Positions 17,024 to 31,957 of a stretch of DNA of 37,810 nucleotides are shown here, one piece after another (within the stretch, counting starts at the first letter, position 1; every line of letters begins with the position of its first letter). A program made the position numbers and the translations under genes. The notes beneath the pieces are model-generated. The model ran no database searches. It had not been told where the DNA came from and was given only the letters and a program-made list of their open reading frames with translations. Origin of the DNA: Clostridiales bacterium (GTDB lineage Bacteria; Bacillota; Clostridia; Christensenellales; CAG-314); the NCBI GenBank assembly GCA_022508375.1, contig JAFLVJ010000010.1, positions 1 to 37,810 of the forward strand. The letters are read 5' to 3'.

Positions 17024-18700
17024 TTATTCAACTGTAAGCGCTTTCTCAACCTCGCTGACAAGCTTGTCGTAAGTGATGCTACCCTGTTTTGTAAAGGTAA
17101 TGTTGCCGTTTTTGTCCACGATAAGCGTCATGGGCCAACTGGAGATACCGCCAAGCGCTTGGAAAGTTTTACAAACTTTGCCTTCGATTTCATCTTGCAA
17201 GAATATAACGTTATAGTTGCGCCAACTTTCCTTGGTGTCCGTTGGACGTATGATAAATCTTGCTACGTCCTCGGTAGAACTTCCGTGTATCGCTATAAAC
17301 TTGACTTCGGGATACTCCGTTGCTGCTTGGTTGAAGTAGGGCAGTTCGGCAACGCACGGGCCGCACCAGGTCGCCCAAAAGTTTATCACTACGACGCTTC
17401 CTTTTTGTTCGCTTAAGGTAAACTTGTCTTCAAGTAGTCGGTAGTTGCCACTGTCGTTTTCGCCGTAAATATTTAACGTAAAGTCGGAACACGGAGTTCC
17501 AATCATTATATCCGTAACTTGCTGTTGCTCAGCAAATACGTTGAAGTACAGTAGCGCACCCACAAGCAGTAATATTGCCAGACTCCATGCAACTATCTGC
17601 GTCCAAAAGGCTTTGTTTCGCTTTTGCTTGGTTGTTACCTGTTGTACACCCGGAGTTGAACTGTCACCCCGTTCGTTATTGCTTGATTGTGAGTCGGTAA
17701 TGGCAGCGGTTGAGTTGAAACTTGTATTCACATTGTGCGACGTTGGTGTACTTGTGACCGTATCGGTTATTTCATCGGTCAGTAAATCGGACGGTTGAGC
17801 TTTGTCGCGCTTGCCAAATATTTCCGAGCCTTTCCAGCTGATAGCCTTTACAGGGCAAACCTTCATACACTTGCCACAGTTGATGCATTCGTGGTCGCCA
17901 ACACGCTTTACGTCCATTTGACAGTGACTTACGCACAGTCCACAGTCGGTACATTTGATCTGGTCCACCTTGACGCCGAGAAAAGCTATCTTGTTGAAGA
18001 AACCGTAAATGGCGCCCAACGGGCAAAGGAAACGACAGAACGGACGGTACATAAATACACACAACACCAGTATTGCGCACATCAGGGCAAATTTCCAAGT
18101 GAATATCGACCCAAGCATGTTGAGCAAGTCTCGACTTCCGTTCCAGTTTGCGGGATTGATGAGCAAGCCTACTCCTCCGCCTAGCGTTCCTGCCGGACAA
18201 ATGAACTTGCAAAATGCCGGTACCGCTATACCTTGCATGCCGTACAGTAGTGGAACTGCCACAACCAAAGCAACTAAGATAACGTATTTAAGATATGATA
18301 GTACGCGTGTTAAACGGCTTTTCTTTATCTTAAACGACGGGATAAGATGCAATAATTCCTGTCCCAGACCTACGGGGCACAAAAACCCGCAAATTGTACG
18401 CGCAAATATCAAACCGAACAGTCCGATGATTCCCAGTATGTAGTAGGGCGCGCGTGTTTCCGACTGGGCGAAGGCATTTTGCAACGACCCGAGCGGGCAC
18501 GCTCCCACAGCTCCAGGACAGGAGTAACAGTTCAGTCCCGGTACGCACACCGACTTGGTGACGGATTGCGAAATGTTTCCCGTTACAAATCCTTTAATGT
18601 TGGCGTTGTACAGCAAAGCTACGTACAACTGAATAAGTCTTCGTTTCGACGGCTTGTGGCGTTTAAACCAATCTTTTATTGAATGGAAAAATTTACTCAT
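17024..18700 (-). CDS. Polyferredoxin (NapH/YccM-like) fused to a TlpA thioredoxin (558 aa)
   Basis: The N-terminal half is a membrane 4Fe-4S protein of the NapH/YccM type. It carries NCYSCPGAVGACPLG, three CGFLCP-like motifs (ICGFLCPVG, FCKFICPAG, FCRFLCPLG), several membrane helices and two ferredoxin motifs (Cys250/253/256/260 and Cys272/275/278/282). A low-complexity Ser/Thr linker and one helix (about 362-385) lead to an extracytoplasmic TlpA domain with WCGPC (Cys446, Cys449) and cis-proline SSWPMTL. The layout suggests electron transfer from cytosolic ferredoxin to thiols outside, replacing a CcdA-type pump; none is visible here. I use the start at 18700 rather than 18718 because it begins MSKFF, is preceded by GGGGTGA, and leaves a four-base gap after the upstream gene, pointing to translational coupling. 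Confidence 0.88.
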   Translation of the reverse strand: MSKFFHSIKDWFKRHKPSKRRLIQLYVALLYNANIKGFVTGNISQSVTKSVCVPGLNCYSCPGAVGACPLGSLQNAFAQSETRAPYYILGIIGLFGLIFARTICGFLCPVGLGQELLHLIPSFKIKKSRLTRVLSYLKYVILVALVVAVPLLYGMQGIAVPAFCKFICPAGTLGGGVGLLINPANWNGSRDLLNMLGSIFTWKFALMCAILVLCVFMYRPFCRFLCPLGAIYGFFNKIAFLGVKVDQIKCTDCGLCVSHCQMDVKRVGDHECINCGKCMKVCPVKAISWKGSEIFGKRDKAQPSDLLTDEITDTVTSTPTSHNVNTSFNSTAAITDSQSSNNERGDSSTPGVQQVTTKQKRNKAFWTQIVAWSLAILLLVGALLYFNVFAEQQQVTDIMIGTPCSDFTLNIYGENDSGNYRLLEDKFTLSEQKGSVVVINFWATWCGPCVAELPYFNQAATEYPEVKFIAIHGSSTEDVARFIIRPTDTKESWRNYNVIFLQDEIEGKVCKTFQALGGISSWPMTLIVDKNGNITFTKQGSITYDKLVSEVEKALTVE

Positions 18701-18704
18701 GCTT

Positions 18705-19703
18705 TCACCCCAAACCAATACATTCCGTGCAAATATTGATTGCTTTTATCAGCACGTCGTTTGCTCCGCCGTTAGTTACGCCCACAATGATGAACGTAAT
18801 AGCAATTACGGCAACTGCAATACGTGTGATGAGTAGTAGTACCTTGTTTACTTTATCGGATATTTGGCTCTTTACGGAGTTGTAAACAGCAAAGCCGACT
18901 GCAATAAATTCGGCAACGGTAAGTACGATTACGTAAATATACGTCTGCGACAGACTGAATACGCTGTGAAGTATCAGCGGCGACAATGCGTATGCCGCAA
19001 TTGCAACGCCAAGTACTATTCCCGCGACAATTGCCACAACTGTTGCAGCTTTTTTAGTTATTTCTTTGCGTTCGGGAATTGCGCCTTTATCGCCTGTGAC
19101 AATCGCCGTTTTAATAGCGGTTATTTCGCGCTTGAGTAGTATTTCGTCCGCAATTGCCGCAGCTATTCCCACGGCAAGTCCCGCCACCGTCCAACTGAGC
19201 ACGTTTTTGACCAGGTTGAGAATATCGGCTTTCAACGCGTCGGTGTGGTAGTGCGTGACGTTAAATACGTAAATAAGTATCGCTACCGTTGCAACCAGCA
19301 ACACGCCAAGCGTTCCGTACCATATTCCTGTTCGCGCTTTTTCGAATTTCTTCATGGAGTGAATTGCGGCAGCGTATTCCTCCCCGCCTTCGGTGGGCAG
19401 GCGTTTTTTCAACAGTGCGAGCGTATTGCCGTTGTCCTTATACGTCGCCTTGTTTTCAGCTATGGGAAACACAATAGACAGTACAATTCCCGCAATCACT
19501 GCGGCAACAAAGCATAGCAACAATGCAAATGGCAACACAATATGTTCCCGAATCCTTTCGATTTCGAATGGATAATCGGGGTTTTCCGCCAGTCCTCCGT
19601 AGTACACTTGCGAAACTGCGATGATAAATGATACCCCCACAATCACAGCCAGTACTGCGAGAAATATTCCGTAATAAAAGCGTATTTTGTGTGATTTAAC
19701 CAA
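18705..19703 (-). CDS. Seven-helix membrane protein with CD1871A-like CxxC tail (332 aa)
   Basis: The body has about seven hydrophobic segments and a soluble stretch near residues 80-120. The last 45 residues (one helix, then VLIKAINICTECIGLG) match what I recall of the small clostridial CD1871A-family CXXC-motif proteins, which normally stand alone at about 40-50 residues. Here that module is fused to a larger membrane protein. I chose the TTG start at 19703: on the minus strand AAGGTG lies six bases before it, and the longer frame would begin inside the promoter. The CxxC lies at the C-terminal end and could accept or pass electrons from the downstream polyferredoxin. The role in an electron relay is inference. 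Confidence 0.65.
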   Translation of the reverse strand: MVKSHKIRFYYGIFLAVLAVIVGVSFIIAVSQVYYGGLAENPDYPFEIERIREHIVLPFALLLCFVAAVIAGIVLSIVFPIAENKATYKDNGNTLALLKKRLPTEGGEEYAAAIHSMKKFEKARTGIWYGTLGVLLVATVAILIYVFNVTHYHTDALKADILNLVKNVLSWTVAGLAVGIAAAIADEILLKREITAIKTAIVTGDKGAIPERKEITKKAATVVAIVAGIVLGVAIAAYALSPLILHSVFSLSQTYIYVIVLTVAEFIAVGFAVYNSVKSQISDKVNKVLLLITRIAVAVIAITFIIVGVTNGGANDVLIKAINICTECIGLG

Positions 19704-19813: not shown

Positions 19814-19843
19814 ATGTTTATAATATAATCTTTATCTTATATA

Positions 19844-19872
19844 TTGCTTTTTGGGCGCGTAGGTGTTATAAT
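19844..19872 (+). promoter_or_regulatory. Promoter of the TIR-radical SAM operon
   Basis: TTGCTT (19844-19849), 17 bases, TATAAT (19867-19872). The leader to the TIR gene is about 58 nt. It is the only clear promoter before the terminator at 31238. Confidence 0.75.
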
Positions 19873-19937
19873 TATATACAAATTGCCATTATACGACAAA
19901 ATATACTTTTCAGTACCGAATAGGAGGAAAGTTGTGT

Positions 19938-21002
19938 ATGCCTGATCCCAAGTATGTGTTTATAAGTCATAGCAACAAAGAACCGGACGCAAGCTTGCTG
20001 AAACGGTTGTCGGAGTATTTAGAGTCGCAACGGCTTTCCGCTTGGTACGACGTGGACGGTCTCATGGGCGACAAGTGGACCCGACAGGTTGGCGACAGAT
20101 TACTGCATGCAACTGTTTATGTGCTCATTGCGAGCGTCAATTCGCTAACCTCCCCCGAGGTAAAGGACGAGTTGGATAAGATTCGCTACGAAAAGGTGCA
20201 CAACGGTAAGGCGATTATTCCGTTAGTGATGGATGACAGTTACTTTACATTGATAAGGACGGATAAGGACCTATATTCCGTACTTGGTTCCAACTCCGAT
20301 CAGGCTGTACTGATGTCCAAGTTTACAAGCGAACAGGCTGCATTCGAACGCTTGGGCGAATATCTCAAGTGCTACCTTGACGAATTCGAAAACAACCCCA
20401 AGGATTTCACAACGGACGAATCGGGGACAAAGCTTGTTAAATACGTCGGCACGGATAGTATCGTGCGCATACCTGCAAGCATTACCGAAATAGGCGAACG
20501 CGCGTTTTCCGGCAATAAACAGTTACAAAAGGTTATTGTTCACAGCGCTGTAACCAAGATAGAGCGGTACGCTTTCAAAAGTTGTTCGAGCCTTGTTGCG
20601 GTGGAAGGTATGCAAGGCGTAGAGTGCTGTGACGTAACGGCGTTTAAGGATTCGGGCGTAGGTGACAACAGCATTATCTGCGGCGTGGTATTTAACGGAG
20701 AGGTTGTAGGCGGTGTGTTGACAGTACCCGAGGGCGCGCGAGTTATTGCGAGCGGCGCGTTTAATTGCTGTGACGCCAAGCAGATTGTGTTCCCCGTTGG
20801 GCTTGAACATATAGGAGCGATTGCCTTTAGCGGAAGTTCATATATTACGGAAGTTGAGTTTCCCGTCTCCCTCAAGTCCATTGGTAAAAACGCATTCGCC
20901 GATTGCATGGAACTGAAAATGGCAATATTTAACGGCAAAAAACCGGCTGACGCAGAGTTGGCATTTGAAAATAAAATCACTATTAAGGAGCTCTACAAAT
21001 GA
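19938..21002 (+). CDS. TIR domain protein with BspA-type leucine-rich repeats (354 aa)
   Basis: AGGAGG at 19922-19927 lies ten bases before this ATG; an in-frame TTG at 19932 is too close. Residues about 4-130 form a TIR domain: KYVFISHSNKEPD at the first strand, the AWYDVDG loop, and SLTSPEVKDELDKI, where Glu78 is the likely equivalent of the NADase glutamate. Residues about 170-336 are BspA-like LRR_5 repeats (TEIGERAFSGNKQLQKV, TKIERYAFKSCSSL, EHIGAIAFSGSSYI, KSIGKNAFADCMEL). TIR domains of bacteria often cleave NAD or make cyclic ADP-ribose signals in immunity, and LRRs usually recognise a ligand, so this could be a sensor-effector. No ThsA, SIR2 or STAND partner is present. The stop overlaps the next start (ATGA), so the two are translationally coupled. 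Function is inferred from domains only. Confidence 0.88.
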   Translation: MPDPKYVFISHSNKEPDASLLKRLSEYLESQRLSAWYDVDGLMGDKWTRQVGDRLLHATVYVLIASVNSLTSPEVKDELDKIRYEKVHNGKAIIPLVMDDSYFTLIRTDKDLYSVLGSNSDQAVLMSKFTSEQAAFERLGEYLKCYLDEFENNPKDFTTDESGTKLVKYVGTDSIVRIPASITEIGERAFSGNKQLQKVIVHSAVTKIERYAFKSCSSLVAVEGMQGVECCDVTAFKDSGVGDNSIICGVVFNGEVVGGVLTVPEGARVIASGAFNCCDAKQIVFPVGLEHIGAIAFSGSSYITEVEFPVSLKSIGKNAFADCMELKMAIFNGKKPADAELAFENKITIKELYK

Positions 21003-23653
21003 CAAGGAAAGAAACAGGCTTGAGCGCTAAAGCGATGGATGAACTTATAAAAGGTTTGACCGAAAGCACCGATTGGGCAAAACAAAAAGAAGAAGTGTCT
21101 GTAAAAATCCGACACGATATCATTGGCGTACTTAGCGACATGAACAAGAGGGGTTTATTTGACACGGAGTTCCTCAACTATTGCAACTCGGTTAAGTCAC
21201 TGTTGGCAATACAAAACTTCGGCTCACTGCCCGAGAACAATACGGGTGAGGAAAGCGCCGATGCCAAAATTGCCAATGAGTTGATTTTGAAGGGCATCGA
21301 AAGGATTCTTGCGCACGTTAAGCAGGGCATAGGTTACGATATCGAGCCATACCTGCCCAAGGACGAATGTCTGGAGATTTTCGGTCTTGAAGATGATTCC
21401 GACAAGGTTGTTCCCGTAACCTTGTCCGCAATGACGGTGTTTACCGTACTGATATACTTCCGTCGCGCTTACAAAAGACAAAATTTGTTTTCCGACGATG
21501 AGTTACAAACGGAAAACGGCGACATCATGCAAGAAGTTATATCCGTTGTTGCCGAACTGATGTACAACATTTATCAATACGCCGTTAGCGGAACTCAAAA
21601 GTTTGCCGGTTGGGGCGTTACGCTTGATCCGACTGTATCCAAGGCTATAACGTTGAGCGACACCTACGCAGTAGTGGATGCGCTGTCCCGTTTCGCAGAC
21701 GCGTTTACCAAGTCGGGACTTAAACGCGACAAGGAGTTTACCGACGCAATCGACGACTACGCTAAATTGCATTTCGGTATGGAGTCGCTTGTAGATTACT
21801 GTCTTGAATCAACCTACAAGACGGCGTACAATGTTTATGACGCAACCCGCAAGGTTTACGGCAAGGAAAGGGCTTTTTACGTGCTTACCAAAAACGACGG
21901 TAACGACGTGGATTACAAATACAATGGCACCGATTACGATCAAATTGCCGCAAGCAACCGCTCGTCGGCATTGTTCAATCCGTTGTATATTGCAATGATA
22001 ACCATGTACGGATACGACGACAAGGAGTTGGTAATACGCGCATTCATGGATGATCCGGAATTGAGCGAATCTTACTACGGCAAGTACGAAAAGGAAATCG
22101 TCGAATATTCCCGTACTCTTAGCGGTTACAACGACGAAAAGGAACACAACGACTTTGTTCGAGATCACGGCATACTGGCAAAAAAGGACTCCAAAAAGTC
22201 GCAGGACTACTCCAACTCCACCTACAAGTCGGATCAAAACGACGGCAAGGAGTGGAAGAAATACTACAAGGTAGCGCGCGTCTATCAAAAGTTCCTTGAG
22301 GAAAAACATCCCGAAGAATTGATGGAAATCCCCGCTTACCGTGATTATCTTAACGCAACCAAGGACGCAATCGACCAAGTAGTGGTGCTTTACCGCGACT
22401 TTGAAAACAATCAACGTTTGGGCGTGGTGGATACCGACTACGTAATGTACTCCGAGTTGGACGTTGCGGTGGATCGCGAAGACAAGGTTAGCATACCCAA
22501 GCTTAACAAGGCAAACGTGGCGGTAAATAATCTTCGCCCCATGTTGCTGTCCTCCAAGATAATGATTGTTAATGCGCTTACCAAGTATCCGCAATCGGAT
22601 ATGAAGGAGCTTTACGCCGCCATTATCAACAAAAGACATCAAAAAATAAACAAAAAGAATCGCACCAAGGAAGCCGAATGGTTGTGGAACGAGGACAACG
22701 TGGATATGAACTCCACCGCCCGTCACTGCGAAGCAATAACGTACGATTATTTCGACTACTACGAAAAGTATGAGCTGGGCTTCCTTGCAATCAAAAATTT
22801 ACGCGAAGCGCTATCTGCGGAAATATTGGCGGATAATGTCAGCGAGGAAGACGGTACCTTTACGCCCGGCGAAAGCGTGGCAGAAGACGGCGCAGATAAA
22901 AAGTTACTTGCGCTCAAACGTCTATTGCTGGAACTCACCCGTCAAAACGTCGATCTTGTCAAGGGCATTTACCAAAACAACCTTCAGGAAAGGGACAAGG
23001 AAAACCAACGTTTGAAGGAAGAAAAAGCCGCCCGCGAAGAAAAACACAAAAAGGAAATCGAAAACCTTCACAACATTTATCAAGATCAATTGCGCCGTCA
23101 ACAGGACAGCTTGCTTATGGGCGAAACGTTGCGCAACTGGATAAGGGAGGAAATAGAGACCTTCTTTACGCGCAACATGGCGATGGCTGTTATCAATACG
23201 CTTAACACCAAGATCAAGACGAGCAAAAACTTCACCGAGGAACACTTCGAAGATATGTACAACGGTGGCGATATTGTTGACGCCAAGTTCGACTTTGTCA
23301 AGGGCGTATGGGCGGATATAGTTGCCGACTGTGACGTTGATCCGGACAAAAAGCATGAAAAATTTGCCAAATATACCGAAGAATTTAAACATGCTATTTA
23401 TTTCCGCGAGACGTTATCGGCAGCCTGCAACGGTATCTTGGAAAAGTCGTTTTACAATACGCTTGGAACAAATAAGGATTTCTCCTTGGAAAAGCGTAAC
23501 GATGAGATAAGAGGCGCGTATAACCGCAGAAAGTATTACGGCACTCCCGAAGGCGAGAAACCCAACGAAAAACCCAACGAGGCGGCTGCCAATACCGAAG
23601 CTAACAATCAGGAAGCAACCAATCCGGAAACGGACGATAAAAAAGGCGAATAA
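20999..23653 (+). CDS. Large coiled-coil protein of unknown function in the TIR operon (884 aa)
   Basis: I do not recognise this protein. AAGGAG at 20985-20990 and a four-base overlap with the TIR gene fix the start. It has no signal peptide or membrane segment. Residues about 1-630 are mainly helical, with many Tyr/Asp/Lys-rich helices. Residues about 630-715 are a strongly charged coiled coil (NLQERDKENQRLKEEKAAREEKHKKE). A helical domain follows (about 715-850), then a disordered Pro/Asn/Glu tail (KPNEKPNEAAANTEANNQ). Its stable place between a TIR protein and a ParA-like ATPase suggests a cytoplasmic scaffold or partner of one of them. That is inference. No nuclease, protease or nucleotide-binding motif is visible. 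Confidence 0.8.
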   Translation: MTRKETGLSAKAMDELIKGLTESTDWAKQKEEVSVKIRHDIIGVLSDMNKRGLFDTEFLNYCNSVKSLLAIQNFGSLPENNTGEESADAKIANELILKGIERILAHVKQGIGYDIEPYLPKDECLEIFGLEDDSDKVVPVTLSAMTVFTVLIYFRRAYKRQNLFSDDELQTENGDIMQEVISVVAELMYNIYQYAVSGTQKFAGWGVTLDPTVSKAITLSDTYAVVDALSRFADAFTKSGLKRDKEFTDAIDDYAKLHFGMESLVDYCLESTYKTAYNVYDATRKVYGKERAFYVLTKNDGNDVDYKYNGTDYDQIAASNRSSALFNPLYIAMITMYGYDDKELVIRAFMDDPELSESYYGKYEKEIVEYSRTLSGYNDEKEHNDFVRDHGILAKKDSKKSQDYSNSTYKSDQNDGKEWKKYYKVARVYQKFLEEKHPEELMEIPAYRDYLNATKDAIDQVVVLYRDFENNQRLGVVDTDYVMYSELDVAVDREDKVSIPKLNKANVAVNNLRPMLLSSKIMIVNALTKYPQSDMKELYAAIINKRHQKINKKNRTKEAEWLWNEDNVDMNSTARHCEAITYDYFDYYEKYELGFLAIKNLREALSAEILADNVSEEDGTFTPGESVAEDGADKKLLALKRLLLELTRQNVDLVKGIYQNNLQERDKENQRLKEEKAAREEKHKKEIENLHNIYQDQLRRQQDSLLMGETLRNWIREEIETFFTRNMAMAVINTLNTKIKTSKNFTEEHFEDMYNGGDIVDAKFDFVKGVWADIVADCDVDPDKKHEKFAKYTEEFKHAIYFRETLSAACNGILEKSFYNTLGTNKDFSLEKRNDEIRGAYNRRKYYGTPEGEKPNEKPNEAAANTEANNQEATNPETDDKKGE

Positions 23654-23698
23654 AACGAAAAACAACATACTTGAGGTTAAATTTTTACGGAGGTTAAA

Positions 23699-24724
23699 AT
23701 GTTAATAGTATCTTTCAATTCGTACAAAGGTGGTGCTTGCCGTACCACGACATGTTACAACACGTTACCATATCTTGCAGAAAAGCTAAAAGCAACGTCG
23801 CACAATCCCGTAATAGTTTTCGACGTCGATTTGGACAGTATGGGACTTACAAACTTGCTTGGCGAGTCGGACGCAATCCAAAAATTGGTAAGTAAGGATA
23901 GGGTTGCCAAGCCTTATTCGGCAAGACACTTGTTTATCGACGACACAGATGGCATCAACAGAGATTTGGGAATGTACGATTTGGAATCGGTCGAAAATGC
24001 CAATTGGTATTTTAAATATTTTACCAAGGTGGGCAAGAAGCTTGGTCTAAAGGATGAGGGTAGCGTTTTGTTTTGCGGGGCGGACTCCGCCGCGGATACG
24101 ATAACGGACGAACAGTTTCAAAAGCAAAAGGATAATCCTCCGTTGAGACTGCTTATTTCCAAACTTATGGATATGGGCGACAATGCGCCGAGAGCAGTAG
24201 TATTCGACTGCGCTTCGGGCGTTCAGCAAACGACGCTGAGCGTACTTTCCTCCATTGACTGCGCAGTAATGTGCATGCGTCCCACCGATCAGTTCCGTAT
24301 AGGAACGAGCGAATACTTGCTGGATAAGATTCCCGCCAAGATCAACCGTTTCAACGGCGGTAAGTCACGCAAGATTGTGCTTTTGCCCACAAGTGTGTCG
24401 CCTAACACTGTTTCCGAAAGCGATCCCAATTACAAAAACGCAGTTGTGGAATTGCAAAACCTCAAAAAGAAAGCATTCAAAAAAATCAACGAACAAATTA
24501 TCGAACCTATCCTAGATGCGCTTGACGACGGTAGCGTACTGGGATACGAACTTAATATCAAGATGATAAATCAAGCGGAAGGTATCGAGGGTATTCCCGA
24601 AGTGGAACGCTTCAAGTGGGAAGAATCCAAGCTTCTTTACGCCCTGGACGAAACGCTTACCGAACAGGAAAAGCTGTTGAAATCCCGTTACGAGATGCTT
24701 GCACAAGTTTTGGTGGAGAAATAG
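23699..24724 (+). CDS. ParA/MinD-like ATPase with altered Walker A motif (341 aa)
   Basis: SIMIBI-class P-loop protein of the ParA/MinD type. The N-terminus reads SYKGGACRTTT. The signature lysine is kept (Lys10), but the usual GKT is CRT, so Cys14 and Arg15 replace the glycine and the Walker A lysine. FDVDLDSMGLT matches the Walker A-prime/switch I region and VVFDCASGV the Walker B/switch II region. A clear ribosome binding site (CGGAGG) precedes the ATG. It follows the coiled-coil gene by 45 bases and precedes the next by six, inside the TIR operon. ParA-type proteins position cargo or switch partners by ATP-driven dimerisation. KGG-x-GR variants also occur in other proteins, so the change may tune rather than abolish ATP use; activity is uncertain. 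Confidence 0.82.
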   Translation: MLIVSFNSYKGGACRTTTCYNTLPYLAEKLKATSHNPVIVFDVDLDSMGLTNLLGESDAIQKLVSKDRVAKPYSARHLFIDDTDGINRDLGMYDLESVENANWYFKYFTKVGKKLGLKDEGSVLFCGADSAADTITDEQFQKQKDNPPLRLLISKLMDMGDNAPRAVVFDCASGVQQTTLSVLSSIDCAVMCMRPTDQFRIGTSEYLLDKIPAKINRFNGGKSRKIVLLPTSVSPNTVSESDPNYKNAVVELQNLKKKAFKKINEQIIEPILDALDDGSVLGYELNIKMINQAEGIEGIPEVERFKWEESKLLYALDETLTEQEKLLKSRYEMLAQVLVEK

Positions 24725-24730
24725 TTTATT

Positions 24731-27256
24731 ATGGGAAACATTAAGGAAATTCGCAACAAAGCGGGCGAAACGGTGGATTTAAGCAACAGTGAAGCATTTG
24801 CCAGATTGGCGTTGGAAATGGTCCCCAATCCCGTTGCCCGTTCTGTTTTGTTTGGAACCAATTTGTACAAGGATAATGTTGACGAATTGGTCAGCAGCAT
24901 TGTACGTGACAAATTGGGTGGCGAATCGGGACTTGTTCAAGTCATGCGCAGTACAATCAACTTGGCATTTGTCGTTGCCATTACCCGCTGGAAACAACTG
25001 TACGATCACGCGCCGTGGGACCACGATGAGACAATCGAGGCTTTTCAAAACTCACGCTTTACCAAGATCTTTTTGAGCGCGTTGAGTAAGGAAGACATTA
25101 CGTTGGACTTGCAGGTTTTTGCGCTGATTGAGCTGTGGGTAGGTTTGAAATCGGACGAATACATTCGTGAAGACTTTGCCAATATTTACAGCATGGGTAG
25201 CAAAGGCGAAAACTTCGGACTAACGCTACAGGAAATACGTGACGCCATCAAGAAGGCGTCTTTCGGCAACCTGTACGCAACCAATTACGACTTGGAATAC
25301 GCCAACTATTTGTGTTACAAGCTGCTCAATTCGTTCCCGTTTTTGCGCACGTTGGAAGTGCAATACCCGCAGGATCCATTGGATCGCAACAAGCATTCGT
25401 TTTACCTGAGATATCCGTTAAACATCATGGGTGAATACGTTACGCTTTATCCTAACGATTTTTACGAAAAGGATGACTTCGTTGTTACGGAACAACAGCT
25501 TATCATACGAAGCGCCGCCAATGAAGAAGAAGGAAAAAGCAAGCTGAGAGGACGCGCTACAACGTTGAATTTGTTTATGCTGTCCGAGGCGTCGGCATTT
25601 ACCGGAAAGTTGCAATATACCTATCGCTCCTTTGCCGGCGACAAGGAAGCGCGAATCGAAGTGGACGAACACAAGTCGGAGAGTTTCTTGGTGGAAAAAG
25701 CCGACGACATTCACGAGATGCGCAAGTTCCTGTCCTTCAACTACAAGAACATTCGCGAGTTCGCCATTATCGTAAGCGACGCGCTTAAGGATTCACCCAT
25801 CAAGAAGAAGGAAATTTACGACCTGTGCCGTCAGCGCAATTCCAAGATTATCCCCACCGATATACACAGCGCCGATTCGCCCAATATCTATTGGGACAAC
25901 GTCATCACATTGATGCTGGTGGAGATTGGTCCGAGCGACTTCCTCGAGCATATACTGGATGAAAAAACCGTCTTCGATACGATAATTCAAAATATCGAAT
26001 GGCGTTACGCAGGGTACAACTTTATCGCTACGTTAAGGTCGAAATACGACGCGTCTTTTTCCTATTTGCAAAAGAGATGCGAAAACAACGAAAGAGCATT
26101 TCTTACCCAGGTGCTCAATTTGCGCGTACGCACGGTGCTTGGCGCTATGGGCTTTGACAAGGAAGAAAGTCGCGGTATCCATGCCTTTGAGGAAAGCCTG
26201 ACCTTCAAGTTCGAAAACATCAACACATGTATCGAGACGCTCAGACAGTATTGCGACAAAAGCGGCGGTGTTGACGTCGTCAAGTGTGACGCCGCACGCA
26301 AAACGTTGTCCGACATTTACAAAAACATTTTCATCTTTTTGCAAATTTTCTACACGGGTTTAAATGCCTATGCCATCAAGAAAAAGGAAATAGATAAGGA
26401 AAATTTAAAGAAAGCCACTCTCGCTGAAAAAATGCGCAAAAAGAGTCAAGAAGATCGCAAGGTCTCCGCGGATGAACTGGAAAAAAATGCCGCAGATAAG
26501 TTCGAACAGCGACGCAAGGAACGTAAGGACCTCTTGGACGAATTTACACAAGCGGCGGCAAATAAATACGCCGATATTCACAAGCAAAGTCTTATTGAAG
26601 CTTTTAAGGCTTTTTGCACGATGTGCAATCAGTACAACACCTACGACTCAAGTAAGGAATTCAGCATCAGTGAGCAAGCGGACAACCTCAAGTATCTTAT
26701 TACCCGCAATTACATCTGTGACGAGAAAAAACTGCGTTTCTTTGCGGAAATCGACTTCGAGGACGGCTCTACGAAAGAGGACGGCTCCAAGTACACGGTA
26801 TTCGACATGCTGGAAAACTTCTCCTACAAGTACTACAACGACGTCAGTTACGGCAAGTGGTTAAATTACTTCCAAGACGTTTTCCTGTTCCTCATTTACA
26901 ACGAGGATTACCACAAGCATGGACTCTATCTGGAAAACAACGTGCTTGAGGACAAGGATTGCGACCCCATATATCCGTATTTGGTAACCTACTACAAGGA
27001 AAACACCGACCGAGACAACCTCAAGAAATGCACCTACCGCGTACCCATTCCCACCAAGAGGGATACCGATCCCAAGGAACAGGGCTACGTTGTTACGTTG
27101 CTGACGGAACAGGAATTTCCCGCAAGCACGTATTTCTGCGTTCCATTGCGTTACGGATCCAGTGAAAACTGGTGGATCAATCCTTTCCTTATTCCTCGAG
27201 GATTTGTACACAAGATGGAAGAATTTCTCAAGAAGAAAAACATTGAATTGAAATAG
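24731..27256 (+). CDS. Large cytoplasmic protein of unknown function in the TIR operon (841 aa)
   Basis: I do not recognise this protein. It starts six bases after the ParA-like gene, with only a weak GGAG within the end of that gene, so translational coupling is likely. There is no signal peptide and no long membrane helix. Residues about 1-250 are helical, with an early hydrophobic segment (VQVMRSTINLAFVVAITRW). Residues about 265-330 look beta-rich. Residues about 551-620 form a highly charged coiled coil (LAEKMRKKSQEDRKVSADEL). The C-terminus is rich in Tyr/Trp (SSENWWINPFLIPRG). Like the 884-residue gene it pairs a large helical body with a charged coiled coil, so the two may form a complex with the ATPase. 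That is inference. Confidence 0.8.
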   Translation: MGNIKEIRNKAGETVDLSNSEAFARLALEMVPNPVARSVLFGTNLYKDNVDELVSSIVRDKLGGESGLVQVMRSTINLAFVVAITRWKQLYDHAPWDHDETIEAFQNSRFTKIFLSALSKEDITLDLQVFALIELWVGLKSDEYIREDFANIYSMGSKGENFGLTLQEIRDAIKKASFGNLYATNYDLEYANYLCYKLLNSFPFLRTLEVQYPQDPLDRNKHSFYLRYPLNIMGEYVTLYPNDFYEKDDFVVTEQQLIIRSAANEEEGKSKLRGRATTLNLFMLSEASAFTGKLQYTYRSFAGDKEARIEVDEHKSESFLVEKADDIHEMRKFLSFNYKNIREFAIIVSDALKDSPIKKKEIYDLCRQRNSKIIPTDIHSADSPNIYWDNVITLMLVEIGPSDFLEHILDEKTVFDTIIQNIEWRYAGYNFIATLRSKYDASFSYLQKRCENNERAFLTQVLNLRVRTVLGAMGFDKEESRGIHAFEESLTFKFENINTCIETLRQYCDKSGGVDVVKCDAARKTLSDIYKNIFIFLQIFYTGLNAYAIKKKEIDKENLKKATLAEKMRKKSQEDRKVSADELEKNAADKFEQRRKERKDLLDEFTQAAANKYADIHKQSLIEAFKAFCTMCNQYNTYDSSKEFSISEQADNLKYLITRNYICDEKKLRFFAEIDFEDGSTKEDGSKYTVFDMLENFSYKYYNDVSYGKWLNYFQDVFLFLIYNEDYHKHGLYLENNVLEDKDCDPIYPYLVTYYKENTDRDNLKKCTYRVPIPTKRDTDPKEQGYVVTLLTEQEFPASTYFCVPLRYGSSENWWINPFLIPRGFVHKMEEFLKKKNIELK

Positions 27257-27269
27257 TGAGGAAAAACTT

Positions 27270-28055
27270 ATGAACCATATCATGATAGACGGCTACCGTG
27301 CCAGCGAAAATCGTCTTGATGATATAAAAACGGTTAATTCGGTACTCAACGAAATAGTGCAAACGCTCAACATCGATTCGGTTATGCCACCTTTTCTTTT
27401 GCCGTACTACTACGCTAAGGACGGTGACGACGACGGTATAAGCGCATTCGTATTGCTTGAGGGCGGACACATAACCATACATACTTTCCCTCGTAGGGGA
27501 TGCCTGTTCGTCGATTTGCTGTATGACGGCTATTTCGACGAGGACAAGCTGTGTTCGATACTGCGCAGAACCTTCCATTACGAACCGGATGACGAAAAAA
27601 CGTTGCGCACCGAACGCAGATTTTACAACCCATCTATGGAAACGAAAAGCCTACACGGCGATTTCGGACCGCATATTATTGCGCGTTTGGAGGATGTTGA
27701 CGTTTCGTTTGAGCAAATCTTCGATATGTTGGACGTGTTGCCTGAAAGCACGAATATGATACCCATTTGCAGACCTTATGTCCTCAAGACAAAGGAATAC
27801 GTCTGCGGAGTGGTGCTGATCGCGCAAAGTCACATTGCTTTCCATTACTGCGTGAAGGAAAAAACACTTTTCGCCGATCTGTTCAGTTGTTCGTTTTACA
27901 AAAGCGACTACTTTATCGACTTTTTGCGTAAACAGTTTAACGTTGCAGACGTCAACGAAAAGACGTTAGTTCGCGGCAGTAAACACGACAAGCAGATATC
28001 CAATCGCGAACGTAAGATCAAGTCGCTTAGCCGTTGGCAAAAGAGAAACATATAA
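27270..28055 (+). CDS. Tandem AdoMet-decarboxylase-like (SpeD/SpeH fold) protein (261 aa)
   Basis: Two copies of the bacterial S-adenosylmethionine decarboxylase fold, each about 125 residues. The N-half has NHIMIDGY then EGGHITIHTFPRRGCLFVDLL. The C-half has PHIIARLED then AQSHIAFHYCVKEKTLFADL and FSC. In Thermotoga maritima the pyruvoyl-forming Ser63, His68 and Cys83 are 5 and 20 residues apart. The C-half reproduces this exactly with Ser187, His192 and Cys207. In the N-half the serine is Gly66 and the cysteine is Asp86; only His71 remains. So one half may self-process while the other is structural, or the substrate is not AdoMet. It may be a relative of SpeD homologs that decarboxylate other amino acids. 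It lies 13 bases after the 841-aa gene and 11 before the radical SAM gene. No spermidine synthase is nearby. Confidence 0.75.
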   Translation: MNHIMIDGYRASENRLDDIKTVNSVLNEIVQTLNIDSVMPPFLLPYYYAKDGDDDGISAFVLLEGGHITIHTFPRRGCLFVDLLYDGYFDEDKLCSILRRTFHYEPDDEKTLRTERRFYNPSMETKSLHGDFGPHIIARLEDVDVSFEQIFDMLDVLPESTNMIPICRPYVLKTKEYVCGVVLIAQSHIAFHYCVKEKTLFADLFSCSFYKSDYFIDFLRKQFNVADVNEKTLVRGSKHDKQISNRERKIKSLSRWQKRNI

Positions 28056-28066
28056 GGAGAACAATT

Positions 28067-29134
28067 ATGGATTGTAACAAGCTTGCACAGTTGAAGGCAG
28101 GATTGCTGTGTTACGGTGTAAACGTTGACAAAGAGGTAGGCGCGGAGCTGTTGAAATCCCGTCCGTACTTTTACGATAAGGGCTTCGTACACGCCGTAAA
28201 CGCCAATATAATGGGTAGCAACGTATGCGTAAGCGTTGCGGAACTGTTCAGCGGTTCATCACCCTATCACCTTGTGACGAAGGATGGCAAGTTTTACATA
28301 AACTACGAAAACGAAAGCGTACCTATTACGCTTTTCGACGATCTGCCCAAGACTAATACCGTAATAGACGACCTTGCGCGTCCTCATTCCAACCACGTTA
28401 TTTCACTGTGGCCGTCGCTTGTGTGTTGCTACGACCGCCCCGGCAAAAAGTGCAAATTTTGCAGTATCAAACCCACGGATGAGCAAACGGTCGTTCCCGC
28501 AAAAGAAGTGGTAGAGGGACTGCGCGCACTGTTTGAAAAAACTCAAAAATATTCGATAAACCTTGGTGGCGGAACGCATGTCAATCCCGACCGTATGGTA
28601 GAGTATCTGATAGATATAATCAAGGGTGTGCGCACATTTACCAATACGCCCATATCAGTGGAACTGGCTCCGCCAAGCAACCTCGATTTGATTGCCGCGC
28701 TTAAAGAGGCGGGCGCTTCGTCGCTTATCATGAACCTCGAAGTTGCTAACCCCGCAAGACGTCGCGAAATATGCCCGGGTAAGTCGTCAATAACTTACGA
28801 GCATTACTACGCAGCTTACAACAAAGCCGTGGAAATCTTCGGCAGGGGCAAGGTCTCCTGCGTACTGATTGCGGGAATTCAACCCAAGGAAGAAATTGTT
28901 GCGGAGTGCGCTAAACTCACCGATATAGGAGTCATTCCCACAATCATTCCATTCAAGGCAATGGACGACTGTGAATTTCACGACAAACCCAACTGCAATC
29001 ACCTTGAGCTACTTTGGATAAGCTCACAGGTTGGCGCATTGCTTCGCAGCAAGGGACTGTCTCCGCAAATGCAGGAAGGCTGCACCAAATGCGGCGGATG
29101 TTCGTTGGAAACTAACTATTACGACTTGGATTAA
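28067..29134 (+). CDS. Radical SAM protein related to the MSMEG_0568 family (355 aa)
   Basis: The start at 28067 is chosen because AAGGAG lies just before it, overlapping the upstream stop. Radical SAM core with an unusual cluster motif C-x7-C-x2-C (CYDRPGKKCKFC; Cys121, Cys129, Cys132) followed by INLGGGTHVNPDR and SVELAPPSNLDL. The C-terminus carries a second cysteine set, GCTKCGGCS (Cys339, Cys342, Cys345), probably binding an auxiliary cluster. Both motifs and the spacing match what I remember of the MSMEG_0568 family found in Nit1C nitrilase clusters, distant relatives of biotin synthase. No nitrilase is here. The substrate is unknown; the neighbours suggest a decarboxylated or phosphorylated small molecule. 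It overlaps no other gene and is followed after five bases by the dikinase. Confidence 0.82.
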   Translation: MDCNKLAQLKAGLLCYGVNVDKEVGAELLKSRPYFYDKGFVHAVNANIMGSNVCVSVAELFSGSSPYHLVTKDGKFYINYENESVPITLFDDLPKTNTVIDDLARPHSNHVISLWPSLVCCYDRPGKKCKFCSIKPTDEQTVVPAKEVVEGLRALFEKTQKYSINLGGGTHVNPDRMVEYLIDIIKGVRTFTNTPISVELAPPSNLDLIAALKEAGASSLIMNLEVANPARRREICPGKSSITYEHYYAAYNKAVEIFGRGKVSCVLIAGIQPKEEIVAECAKLTDIGVIPTIIPFKAMDDCEFHDKPNCNHLELLWISSQVGALLRSKGLSPQMQEGCTKCGGCSLETNYYDLD

Positions 29135-29139
29135 CAAAT

Positions 29140-31218
29140 ATGATTGTGTATGATAAAAAAGTGTATGACGTGTCCGTAGTTGGCGGCAAAGCATACGGAC
29201 TGTTTAAACTGGCGTCGTACGGTTACAACGTACCTGATTTTTTCGTAATAACCGTAGGTACGGACCTGGGTGACAAATTATTTGCGGCGGAGCTTGATGC
29301 TTACGCCGCAAAATTGCATTGTGAATTATTCGCCGTTCGTTCGAGCAACGTCAACGAGGACGGCGGAGTCAACAGTTTCGCCGGTCAATTTGATACGGAA
29401 TTGAACGTTGAACGTGATGCATTGTATCAAGCGGTGATGAAAGTTGCAGCATCGTCGTCAAACAGACAAACGACTGCATACAACGCTCATGTCGATGCGC
29501 ATACATGCGATATGGCAATCGTGGTGCAAGCCCAGATAAATCCGACGTATGCCGGAGTTATGTTTACCACCTCGCCCTTTTCTAACGGTCACGTGTTAAT
29601 AGAACAAGTTGACGGCCTTGGTGAGCAACTGGTCAGCGGTAGCGTTATTCCGCGTAAGACTCAGTTGGCAAAGGGGGAAAACAATTCCACTTTTTACGGC
29701 GAACTGGCGCGGGCAGCCGAATGTCTGGAAAAGCTAGAAGGCTATCCCCTTGACGTAGAATGGGCATATAAGGATAAGCTGTACTTTTTACAAATGCGTC
29801 CGCTCACCGCGCTTGACGACCCATTGCCCGCCGTTCCATCAAGTGATTGGAGCCTGTACGTTTACCGTGATTTTTGTCTGTTCAGCCAATCCGTGCAGGC
29901 TAAGGCTTCGGAACCTCAATTGCAAACGGAGCTGTTCGGTTTTTCCGTTCCGATAGTGGAGGGGTTGTTGGTAAACGGACGTGAATTTTATACTTCACGT
30001 AACGACTTGGCATGTATCAATTTGTGGAAATCGCTGGATGGGGGAAGTTTTTTCGAGGATTTTATTGACAAGTTAAATAAGTCCGTCAGTAAAACCAAAC
30101 GCCTGACAAGTCAATTGAGACGTACCGACTATTCACAGGTGAAGGACAGGACGCTTTTCAACGCTTACAACAAATATATCACGGCGTACATAAAAAGCTA
30201 CGTTCCGCTGATGATACGCCCCGACGACTACTTGCACAGTCAACTGCAACAACTCTTAGGCAAGGAGCAAGCCGACAGCGCGATATCTTGCGTGACGGCG
30301 CTTGCGCGCAATACTTACTACGCAAGCGAGCAGGTGGATTTCCTGATAGCCGTGATAAACGGTAATTCCGCCAAGTATCTTAGTGAATACGAGTGGATTT
30401 ACAACCCACTTGGCAAAAAACTCAACCCAATGACGCTAACTAACTTCGACGATCGCTCCAAACGTTGGACTACGTATGACGCAATTAAGCGATGGAAACA
30501 AATCACCTTACAGCAGGACGAAGACAAGCGCCAAGCAAGACGGTTTATGTCCAAGGTTAGCAATGACGAAACAAAGCGACTGCTCAAATTGATAGTGCAG
30601 TTTGTAGGACTGCGTACATATACGGCGGAAAATAGCGACAGGTTTTTCTTCTATATCCGCAGTAAAATTTTGTCGCAGATAGCACGTAGATTTAATCTTG
30701 CCGAAGAAAGGCTTATGCTCATGACCTTTGAGGAGGTAATGAACCTAGAACAGGGTGTGCCCTCCCGTAACGAACTGGCAAAGCGCAGTCGAGGTAGCAT
30801 GACGGTATTTACCAACGGAGTACACACAACCTACTACGGCGGACAAACATACGGAGTATTGACGGATTTGCTTCCCACACCCGAGTTTGACGAAGGCACG
30901 GTGCGCGGGGAAATCGCCTGTCGCGGAGAGATTACCGCGCGGGTTAGGATTATCAACAATTTCGACGAAACGGACAAGCTTAATGAAGGTGAGATCATCG
31001 TAACATCCATGACGACGCCCGAGCTTACCGTAGCGTTGGAAAAAGCTGTCGGTATCATCACCGACGAAGGCGGTGTAACGTGTCACGCAGCCATCATATC
31101 TAGGGAATACGGCATTCCTTGTCTTGTTGGAACGCAAGTTGCAACGCACGTTTTGCAGGACGGAATGCTTGTAAAGTTGGACTGTATCCAAGGATACTTT
31201 CAAGTTGTGGAAGATTGA
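29140..31218 (+). CDS. PEP-synthase/rifampicin-phosphotransferase-like dikinase (692 aa)
   Basis: The N-terminal ATP-grasp domain of the PPDK/PEP synthase type (about 1-230) shows VGGKAYGLFKLASYG, FAVRSSNVNEDG with SFAGQFDT, YAGVMFTTSPF, VDGLGEQLVSG and YFLQMRPLT. The middle region (about 240-590) is not recognisable and would hold the substrate site. The C-terminal phosphohistidine domain has TSMTTPELT and GGVTCHAAIISREYGIPC, with His649 as the swivelling phospho-carrier. The missing PEP/pyruvate TIM barrel and the 692-residue length point away from true PEP synthase. They favour the ATP-grasp/substrate/His layout of rifampicin phosphotransferase. It likely phosphorylates the product of the radical SAM or decarboxylase-like neighbours. 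It starts five bases after the upstream stop without a good ribosome binding site, suggesting coupling, and ends the operon. Confidence 0.85.
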   Translation: MIVYDKKVYDVSVVGGKAYGLFKLASYGYNVPDFFVITVGTDLGDKLFAAELDAYAAKLHCELFAVRSSNVNEDGGVNSFAGQFDTELNVERDALYQAVMKVAASSSNRQTTAYNAHVDAHTCDMAIVVQAQINPTYAGVMFTTSPFSNGHVLIEQVDGLGEQLVSGSVIPRKTQLAKGENNSTFYGELARAAECLEKLEGYPLDVEWAYKDKLYFLQMRPLTALDDPLPAVPSSDWSLYVYRDFCLFSQSVQAKASEPQLQTELFGFSVPIVEGLLVNGREFYTSRNDLACINLWKSLDGGSFFEDFIDKLNKSVSKTKRLTSQLRRTDYSQVKDRTLFNAYNKYITAYIKSYVPLMIRPDDYLHSQLQQLLGKEQADSAISCVTALARNTYYASEQVDFLIAVINGNSAKYLSEYEWIYNPLGKKLNPMTLTNFDDRSKRWTTYDAIKRWKQITLQQDEDKRQARRFMSKVSNDETKRLLKLIVQFVGLRTYTAENSDRFFFYIRSKILSQIARRFNLAEERLMLMTFEEVMNLEQGVPSRNELAKRSRGSMTVFTNGVHTTYYGGQTYGVLTDLLPTPEFDEGTVRGEIACRGEITARVRIINNFDETDKLNEGEIIVTSMTTPELTVALEKAVGIITDEGGVTCHAAIISREYGIPCLVGTQVATHVLQDGMLVKLDCIQGYFQVVED

Positions 31219-31237
31219 ATTATATTATGTACAACAG

Positions 31238-31267
31238 CCGAGGCTATCAAATAGCTTCGGTTTTTTT
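31238..31267 (+). terminator. Terminator of the TIR-radical SAM operon
   Basis: CCGAGGCTAT / ATAGCTTCGG, a 10-bp stem with one G-T pair and a CAA loop, is followed by seven T residues. It is the first terminator after the TIR promoter. Confidence 0.92.
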
Positions 31268-31408: not shown

Positions 31409-31957
31409 ATGAATAAGGACGAATTGGAAAGATACTTGTGGATAAAAGGTTCTTTTACTATTGCCGAGGTGCAACAAAGGTTTGGTTTGAGTTATGCTGT
31501 CGTCAGACAGTTATTTAGGGAAATGGAAGAAGCCGGCAAGATCTATCTTGAAAGCGGCGTAACCTTCAAGTACATACCTCAGCAAAGGACGGTAATTGAA
31601 CAACATCAAAGTTTTGACGAGAACGATGTTGATGACGATGAACTAGACAATTTATTCGACAGTTTATTTGATGACGAAGATGTCACAGCAAAACCCGCAG
31701 TAATTAACAGCGACGTTGACCCCCTGTGCAAAAAAGCTTTACGTTATTGGTTGTCAAAGCAAGGCGGACGTGCCTCGATTGCGTCCATTCAGCGCAACCT
31801 AGGTATCGGTTTCAATCGCGCAGGCCGCATAATGGATACGCTGCAAAAACTTGGCTACGTGGAAAATTACGTCGAAGGTATGCCCTCGTCAAGACCGCTG
31901 CGTGTTCTTGTTACGCTGGACGAACTTGACAAACTGTTTCCCGACCTACCCGACTAA
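31409..31957 (+). CDS. Stand-alone FtsK-gamma-like winged-helix protein (182 aa)
   Basis: Residues about 1-58 form a winged helix (FTIAEVQQRFGLSYAVVRQLFREME). A very acidic linker (about 65-92, with EDVDDDELDNLFDSLFDDED-like composition) leads to a second winged helix (about 103-178) that closely matches the gamma domain of FtsK/SpoIIIE: DPLCKKALRYWLSKQGGRAS, IGFNRAGRIMDTLQKLGYVE and RPLRVLVTLDEL. In FtsK this domain reads polar chromosomal sequences and activates XerD. Here there is no motor domain, so it is likely a small DNA-binding regulator. A good GAGGAGG site precedes the ATG. The same IGxNRA motif occurs in other stand-alone proteins, so its target may not be the chromosome-dimer site. 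Confidence 0.75.
   Translation: MNKDELERYLWIKGSFTIAEVQQRFGLSYAVVRQLFREMEEAGKIYLESGVTFKYIPQQRTVIEQHQSFDENDVDDDELDNLFDSLFDDEDVTAKPAVINSDVDPLCKKALRYWLSKQGGRASIASIQRNLGIGFNRAGRIMDTLQKLGYVENYVEGMPSSRPLRVLVTLDELDKLFPDLPD

What the first reader, a model, noticed from the sequence alone, without database searches (positions are those of the whole stretch)
19844..31267. Seven-gene TIR-LRR / ParA-like / AdoMetDC-like / radical SAM / dikinase operon: candidate undescribed system
One promoter and one terminator bracket seven genes with gaps of -4, 45, 6, 13, 11 and 5 bases. The set joins a TIR-LRR protein, two large unknown proteins with coiled coils, an altered ParA-like ATPase and three small-molecule enzymes (decarboxylase-like, radical SAM, phosphohistidine dikinase). 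I know of no named defence, signalling or biosynthetic system with this composition; Thoeris and other TIR systems have different partners. One model is that the enzyme trio makes or modifies a small molecule, the LRR part senses an invader or ligand, and the TIR part acts on NAD, with the ATPase and scaffolds controlling assembly. A role in envelope or developmental signalling is equally open.
Basis: partly seen in the sequence, partly recalled or inferred. Interest (0 to 1): 0.88.

Follow-up and report, generated by a model that had tools for sequence, protein, structure and literature searches.

The report
Modular TIR and amine-enzyme operon
A gut bacterium carries a seven-gene operon that belongs to a patchy, exchangeable family of gene sets pairing a cell-damage-type protein with an enzyme that probably makes a small amine, and no catalogue searched here has a name for it.

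Summary
The operon is real: seven genes with the reported gaps and a strong terminator; its promoter is not distinguishable from chance. It is not a one-off. B (alpha/alpha-toroid protein) and C (ParA-like ATPase with the Walker lysine changed to arginine) adjoin D (unmatched 841-aa protein) in 21 of 21 D-bearing genomes among 396 searched. Around this core, parts are swapped. The effector slot holds a TIR-like protein in 33 of 36 loci and a homologous, predicted two-transmembrane protein in the other 3. The chemistry slot holds a tandem AdoMetDC relative (E); E plus radical SAM and dikinase-like enzymes (this window and 10 others); E plus agmatine deiminase or agmatinase; a GNAT; or a SPASM radical SAM. 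E resembles pyruvoyl ornithine/arginine decarboxylases more than AdoMetDC. Core subtypes cross taxonomic families. PADLOC, Pfam, NCBIfam and the papers searched gave no name for the system. Best reading: a horizontally moving conflict (probably anti-phage) system in which an amine-making module sets the signal for a TIR or membrane effector. Conservation and modularity are shown; defence role and chemistry are inferred.

The parts
19938..21002 (+). A: TIR domain + BspA-type LRR (LRR_5), 354 aa; putative effector/sensor
   Evidence: TIR_2 E 1.7e-13, LRR_5 E 2.5e-26; E78 invariant in 21 aligned A proteins
20999..23653 (+). B: 884 aa; predicted alpha/alpha-toroid domain (about 25-600) followed by a long coiled coil
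23699..24724 (+). C: ParA/MinD-like ATPase with KGGxxR P-loop, 341 aa
   Evidence: NF047398 39.5 bits, below cut-off 90; K10, G11, G12 and R15 invariant in 21
24731..27256 (+). D: 841 aa, mostly helical with a C-terminal beta domain (about 743-833); core protein without a convincing fold match
27270..28055 (+). E: tandem AdoMetDC-fold protein, 261 aa; second half keeps Ser187/His192/Cys207, first half lacks the Ser and the Cys
   Evidence: AdoMet_dc E 8.6e-27, two stretches; alignment of 23; motifs of 34 rows
28067..29134 (+). F: variant radical SAM enzyme, 355 aa, Cx7CxxC motif plus C-terminal CxxCxxC
   Evidence: NF045502 155.4 bits, above cut-off 125; Cys motifs invariant in 11
29140..31218 (+). 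G: PEP-synthase-like protein (PPDK_N + phospho-His mobile domain, no PEP-binding domain match), 692 aa
   Evidence: PPDK_N E 5.9e-37, PEP-utilizers E 5.1e-24; TDEGG..CHA with His649 invariant in 10
31236..31267 (+). intrinsic terminator of the operon
   Evidence: 12-pair stem with T tail
19817..19845 (+). possible promoter; not above chance
   Evidence: 9 of 12 consensus positions

Best explanation
A horizontally moving, modular conflict system (most likely anti-phage). SHOWN: B, C and D stay together; the effector next to them is a TIR protein or, instead, a predicted two-TM protein; a variable enzyme module lies beside them, mostly the tandem pyruvoyl-decarboxylase relative E, joined in subtype I by F and, wherever the contig reaches far enough, by G. 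INFERRED: the ATPase C works as a nucleotide-gated switch between the toroid protein B and D and holds or releases the effector. E makes a small amine (putrescine or agmatine), which F and G convert into a dedicated molecule in subtype I. That molecule, perhaps bound in the toroid of B, sets the state of the complex. When infection disturbs it, the TIR (NAD cleavage) or the two-TM protein (membrane) shuts the cell down. The low conservation of A suggests that it also takes part in sensing.
For: Same seven genes in order in the window and L034-L039, L046; in L041 G lies upstream and divergent but is still present. B and C adjoin D in 21 of 21 D-bearing genomes of 396. E and D share 15 of 16 E-bearing genomes, Fisher 1.6e-21. 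Effector exchange: TIR-like protein in 33 of 36 loci with at least B and C, homologous two-TM proteins in L071, L072, L074; a TIR and a D-type C-terminal match share one protein in L107. Amine link: agmatine deiminase in 5 of these loci, agmatinase in L072 and beside E in L052. E second half keeps Ser/His/Cys in 33 of 34 rows but lacks, in 34 of 34, the Pro that I take to be the AdoMetDC mark. SpeE has no match in 17 of 22 carrier entries, that is 15 of 20 distinct genomes. Patchy and crossing families.
Against: No phage or NAD evidence exists here. A PADLOC scan of 93 neighbouring proteins gave 9 families with 1-3 members each: no clear defence-island signal. D was not found on phage or plasmid records, nor D or F in viral contigs. 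Three loci lack TIR; six lack E (three with GNAT, two with a SPASM rSAM, L107 with neither), so no single chemistry is universal. L079, L105 and L124 TIRs score below the Pfam cut-off. AguA and agmatinase matches pass Pfam but lie below the NCBIfam equivalog cut-offs. AguA and arginase families are absent from three subtype I/II genomes, so agmatine processing is not general. L124 has no D match between C and E.
Confidence: 0.5

Rival explanations
1. A regulated polyamine or stress-metabolism operon, not a conflict system: E (with AguA, agmatinase or GNAT) makes or consumes amines, B-C-D localise or gate the pathway, and TIR/LRR senses envelope or nutrient state.
For: Several of the variable enzymes can be read as amine metabolism: pyruvoyl decarboxylase, AguA, SpeB, perhaps GNAT. 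Flanking genes scanned are mostly ordinary.
Against: D is in only 21 of 396 genomes of the order and patchy within a genus. Subtypes cross families. A TIR with conserved Glu and the TIR/two-TM exchange look more like toxic effectors than metabolic control.
Confidence: 0.25
2. A biosynthetic cluster for a secreted or signalling metabolite or peptide, with B-C-D as carrier/assembly proteins and TIR as a binding domain only.
For: rSAM + ATP-dependent dikinase/ligase-like G (weak relatives include PigC and RedH); PapB-like SPASM rSAM in L103 and L106.
Against: Ten loci have A to E without F and G, so the rSAM/dikinase pair is not essential. Gaps between the window genes are at most 45 bases, too short for a precursor peptide inside the operon; precursors elsewhere were not searched for.
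Confidence: 0.1
3. An already described defence system under another name, missed because the libraries held here are older or because the paper library is partial.
For: The PADLOC copy is of 2023; only open-licence papers were searched, and two papers on TIR/conflict gene neighbourhoods (PMC10853773, PMC10732462) were seen only as listings.
Against: No reliable model for B, D or E in PADLOC; only weak TIR and ParA matches for A and C. Seven paper searches aimed at the system listed no paper that names such a composition.
Confidence: 0.12

Closest known systems
Thoeris and other TIR-effector defence systems
   Same: TIR domain with the catalytic-position Glu; use of alternative membrane effectors in some relatives (recalled)
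   Different: No ThsA match; the TIR match to ThsB is marginal (14.8 bits); partners B-C-D and amine enzymes are different
NTP-dependent ternary conflict systems of Kaur et al. 2020 (PMC7159879, passages read)
   Same: Modular, effector-exchanging systems that can contain TIR and MinD/ParA-like domains predicted inactive
   Different: No vWA or MoxR component found by Pfam in the seven proteins
SpeD-SpeDC fusion decarboxylases (PMC10407285, passages and section 7 read)
   Same: Two AdoMetDC-fold domains in one chain of about 270 aa; second domain with processing residues and, by my alignment, without the AdoMetDC proline
   Different: Here the N-terminal half lost the Cys (and the Ser in subtype I), the reverse of the Victivallis fusion, which lost its C-terminal site; fixed inside a TIR operon instead of beside speE
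Nit1C cluster radical SAM (MSMEG_0568 family; the name NitD is recalled)
   Same: F is a distant relative (29-32% in the ten records shown; 156.9 bits to TIGR04043, below cut-off 303.7)
   Different: No nitrilase, AIR-synthase-like or flavin oxidoreductase genes as in the plasmid cluster
Rifampicin phosphotransferase / PEP synthase / PigC-RedH
   Same: G has the ATP-binding and swivelling phospho-His domains
   Different: About 690 aa, no PEP-binding domain match, far below the curated cut-off of each of the 25 NCBIfam models shown

Membership tests
Thoeris | ThsA effector gene beside ThsB | tested here: not met
   PADLOC scan of all seven proteins: no ThsA match at E <= 0.1
Thoeris | TIR protein of ThsB type | tested here: inconclusive
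   ThsB model E 0.0038, 14.8 bits over the TIR only
vWA-MoxR ternary conflict systems | vWA and MoxR components | tested here: not met
   Pfam scan of the seven proteins at E <= 0.1 shows neither
KGGVGR-motif ATPases (NF047398) | score over curated cut-off 90 | tested here: not met
   39.5 bits; P-loop KGGxxR with the Arg invariant in 21
bona fide AdoMet decarboxylase | Ser63/His68/Cys83 equivalents | tested here: met
   second half of E: all three in 33 of 34 rows, L072 lacks the His
bona fide AdoMet decarboxylase | conserved Pro in the central region (marks AdoMetDC against SpeDA, PMC10407285 section 7) | tested here: not met
   absent from the second half in 34 of 34 rows; I take it to be the Pro of HTWP in 1tlu; Figure 8 of the paper was not seen, so the position is my inference
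SpeDC/SpeDA amino-acid decarboxylases | activity on ornithine or arginine | not testable with these tools
   needs an enzyme assay; Gln, Phe and Tyr around the motif resemble three of the four SpeDC marks, but their exact positions are in a figure not held
variant radical SAM (NF045502) | score over cut-off 125 | tested here: met
   155.4 bits
Nit1C cluster | nitrilase and companion genes | tested here: not met
   none among the seven proteins
PEP synthase / PPDK | PEP-binding C-terminal domain | tested here: not met
   only PPDK_N and PEP-utilizers found at E <= 0.1
TIR NADases | catalytic-position Glu | tested here: met
   E78 invariant in 21 aligned; that this is the catalytic Glu is recalled knowledge of TIRs
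TIR NADases | NAD cleavage | not testable with these tools
   needs an assay
alpha/alpha toroid proteins (for B) | toroid fold | tested here: met

The most novel reading that the evidence does not exclude
A new class of immune or conflict system that runs on amines: a pyruvoyl decarboxylase makes putrescine or agmatine, accessory enzymes (rSAM + dikinase, deiminase, ureohydrolase) tailor it, and the TIR uses it as an ADP-ribose acceptor or is gated by it through the toroid protein B and the KGGxxR ATPase. As far as searched here, it would be the first TIR system with its own dedicated amine metabolism.
Probability: 0.2. Interest if true: 0.93.

Novelty: new variant of a known kind. Interest (0 to 1): 0.74.

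Why it matters
If right, it adds a family of TIR systems with an ATPase/toroid core and exchangeable chemistry, ties amine (polyamine) metabolism to bacterial immunity, and gives a natural series of subtypes for working out what small molecule drives it. It also places tandem AdoMetDC-fold proteins, so far discussed for polyamine synthesis, inside a conflict-type system.

Tried and rejected
Rejected: housekeeping spermidine synthesis for E. Of 19 genomes of the genus searched, 17 have no AdoMet_dc match and the two others, both operon carriers, match only at the operon.

Led nowhere: a clean empty site. The PHP gene to the right is in 23 of 23 genus genomes searched, the window's own included. 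In 15 fetched regions (13 with at least 6 kb upstream of it) neither the window's left-flank genes nor an operon gene was listed upstream; the junction is simply variable. Class-wide sample: 1 of 391, the window itself. Viral contigs: D none, F none, E two short single-domain relatives. F on plasmids: 516 records, each under 60% identity. Phage record MT835476 has an F-like gene (46%) without the system in the stretch read.

Rows dropped before counts: L033 and L075 (contig ends on the A side) from the 36-locus effector count; L005, L007, L069, L070 as duplicates of L038, L054, L039, L035; L052 and L053 lack the core. L073, L080 and L125 (one genus) and L124 (B and C, no D match) were counted. 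L033 and L040 were left out of the identity means as incomplete; L040 ends about 1.1 kb after F, so G is untested there. The neighbour scan took 93 of 108 proteins picked (at most two per side from 31 loci, none over 1200 aa): 14 system parts and one 1186-aa protein were left out; the window's own neighbours were scanned with Pfam only.
Full report
Observation. The promoter is not distinguishable from chance. Domain assignments were checked against Pfam, PADLOC and NCBIfam: A is TIR + LRR_5, C a ParA-like ATPase, E carries two AdoMet_dc stretches, F is a variant radical SAM protein over the curated cut-off, G has PPDK_N and PEP-utilizers, and B and D have no family over a cut-off.

Conservation. 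The window is contig 2 of a 1.63-Mb assembly. A genome of the same genus (G002) has all seven genes in the same order in different surroundings, and a genome of another family (G036) has A-B-C-D-E without F and G. A scan of genome contigs with E gave 22 loci; 20 of the 22 have B, C and D directly before E. The records are titled as Clostridia, Clostridiales, Oscillospiraceae, Bacilli or Candidatus Coproplasma MAGs. Ten of the 20 are subtype I with F (L033-L041 and L046); G is present in 9 and the tenth contig (L040) ends. Ten are subtype II, A to E only: L042-L045, L047-L051, L054. In L041 G stands upstream of A on the other strand, so its link to the system survives rearrangement.

Whole-genome sample. 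Of 396 genomes of the order, 21 hold D (the narrower profile found 16) and 16 hold E; 15 are shared (Fisher 1.6e-21). In all 21, B and C lie next to D. The sixteenth E genome, G249 (L124), also has B and C beside E and a 200-aa ORF where D should be, which gave no D match. In G295 and G303 only a shortened D was seen. A class-wide sample found only the window (1 of 391), so the system is rare outside the order as sampled; one search found E without the core in a Bacilli record (L052).

Modules. Over 36 loci with at least B and C and an uncut A side, 33 have a TIR-like protein, judged by alignment or profile. Only the window, L079, L103, L105, L107 and L124 were checked with Pfam, where L079, L105 and L124 fall short of the TIR cut-off. 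The other three loci (L071, L072, L074) have mutually homologous proteins of 508-535 aa with hydrophobic segments near the C-terminus that I read as two TM helices (25-36% identity). In L107 one 889-aa protein holds a TIR (residues 579-689) and, at its C-terminus, the D-type C-terminal match. The chemistry slot varies: E; E+F+G; E plus agmatine deiminase (L071, L074, L105, L124 by Pfam and NCBIfam, L104 by its ORF and motif); E plus agmatinase (L072); GNAT without E (L077, L078, L079); PapB-like SPASM radical SAM without E (L103, L106); L107 with neither. The NCBIfam scores of the agmatine enzymes are below the equivalog cut-offs. L052 has E beside an agmatinase without the core. The A proteins of subtypes I and II share the TIR but differ in the C-terminal part.

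Tree and transfer. In a tree of C (36 rows) subtype I is one clade (100/100), subtype II (L042-L051 without L046, and L054) one clade (100/99), GNAT loci one clade (99/94) and SPASM loci one clade (100/100). The subtype I clade holds genomes of families f1, f24 and f32, while another genome of the window's own genus (G017) carries the GNAT type, next to two genomes of f6. L074 (two-TM protein, agmatine deiminase) groups with L104/L105 (TIR, agmatine deiminase) with 96/88, which points to an effector swap, although 8 of 33 inner branches are open and two rows are very long. Base composition of the operon does not stand out (GC 0.45-0.48 against 0.44-0.49 in the window), and no clean empty site was found.

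E. The family keeps the autoprocessing/catalytic triad of AdoMetDC in its second half: Ser, His and Cys in 33 of 34 rows (L072 has Tyr for His). The first half lacks the Cys in its aligned place and has Gly for Ser in subtype I. In a characterised set (PMC10407285, section 7 read) a conserved proline marks true AdoMetDC against arginine decarboxylases, and Gln/Thr/Phe/Tyr mark ornithine decarboxylases. At the place that I take for the proline the second half of E has another residue in 34 of 34; the second half reads QSHIAFHY in 23 of 23 rows of alignment A6, while four of the five rows beside agmatine deiminase read ESH instead of QSH. I therefore predict an ornithine- or arginine-type decarboxylase; exact mapping to that paper's figure was not possible. 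The lack of a SpeE match in 15 of 20 distinct carrier genomes (17 of 22 entries), the lack of other AdoMet_dc genes in the genus, and the recurrent agmatine enzymes agree. Agmatine deiminase and arginase families are absent from G000, G002 and G036, so in these assemblies the amine is not processed by them.

F and G. Among nine subtype I loci F is by far the most conserved (mean pairwise identity 0.73), E next (0.60), then C 0.49, G 0.44, D 0.42, B 0.40 and A 0.38, as expected if F and E hold a fixed chemistry and A a changing target. F has an invariant Cx7CxxC motif and a C-terminal CxxCxxC in 11 rows. Outside the operon, F has relatives in G063 and G159 in other surroundings, a weaker one in G277 not looked at, and distant MSMEG_0568-family proteins on plasmids, of which the one opened lies in a nitrilase cluster. 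G keeps the phospho-histidine motif in 10 of 10.

Mechanism and doubt. I favour a conflict system in which an amine-making module sets the state of a B-C-D complex that restrains a TIR or membrane effector. What is shown is the conserved core, its co-occurrence with E, the exchange of effectors and enzymes, and a distribution that crosses families. What is inferred is defence, the signal, and each catalytic step. Against it: only a weak defence-gene signal in neighbours (9 PADLOC families in 93 proteins at E <= 1e-8; mostly ordinary families among the 25 of 114 Pfam families shown) and no mobile-element carriage seen.

Literature. Seven of the ten searches were aimed at the system and listed no paper that names such a composition; three served E, TIR chemistry and F. 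Only PMC10407285 (passages, section 7) and PMC7159879 (passages) were opened; the rest, including PMC10853773 and PMC10732462, were seen as listings. The library holds open-licence papers only.

Noticed in passing
window 4898-8038 (-): GH3 family protein with the C-terminal domain match (73-391) before the N-terminal domain match (742-911): permuted order.
   Followed up: no
window 767-4693 and 14238-16874 (+): Two large proteins (1308 and 878 aa) without a Pfam match at E <= 0.01.
   Followed up: no
window 31409-31957 (+): Small winged-helix protein matching the FtsK gamma domain, beside PHP, VanW, DnaB and tRNA-synt_1c genes.
   Followed up: partly
window 17024-18718 (-): Protein with 4Fe-4S matches and a C-terminal thioredoxin-like domain, next to a 354-aa protein that looks membrane-bound.
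   Followed up: no
L053:7162-13292: E without the core, near a TIR-LRR protein and an 801-aa ORF that looks like a methionine synthase by eye; may be a remnant or a separate use of E.
   Followed up: partly
L077:3288-4601 and L078:6522-7925: Second TIR proteins of another kind next to two of the GNAT-type loci.
   Followed up: no
L071:5337-6863, L072:2764-4287, L074:11502-13106: Unnamed family of 508-535 aa proteins with hydrophobic segments near the C-terminus, no Pfam match over a cut-off.
   Followed up: partly
L163 (MT835476.1): Record labelled unverified bacteriophage; the stretch looks bacterial by eye and holds an F-like gene.
   Followed up: partly
L161:4959-5375: Viral contig with a short single AdoMetDC-fold protein distantly like E.
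   Followed up: no
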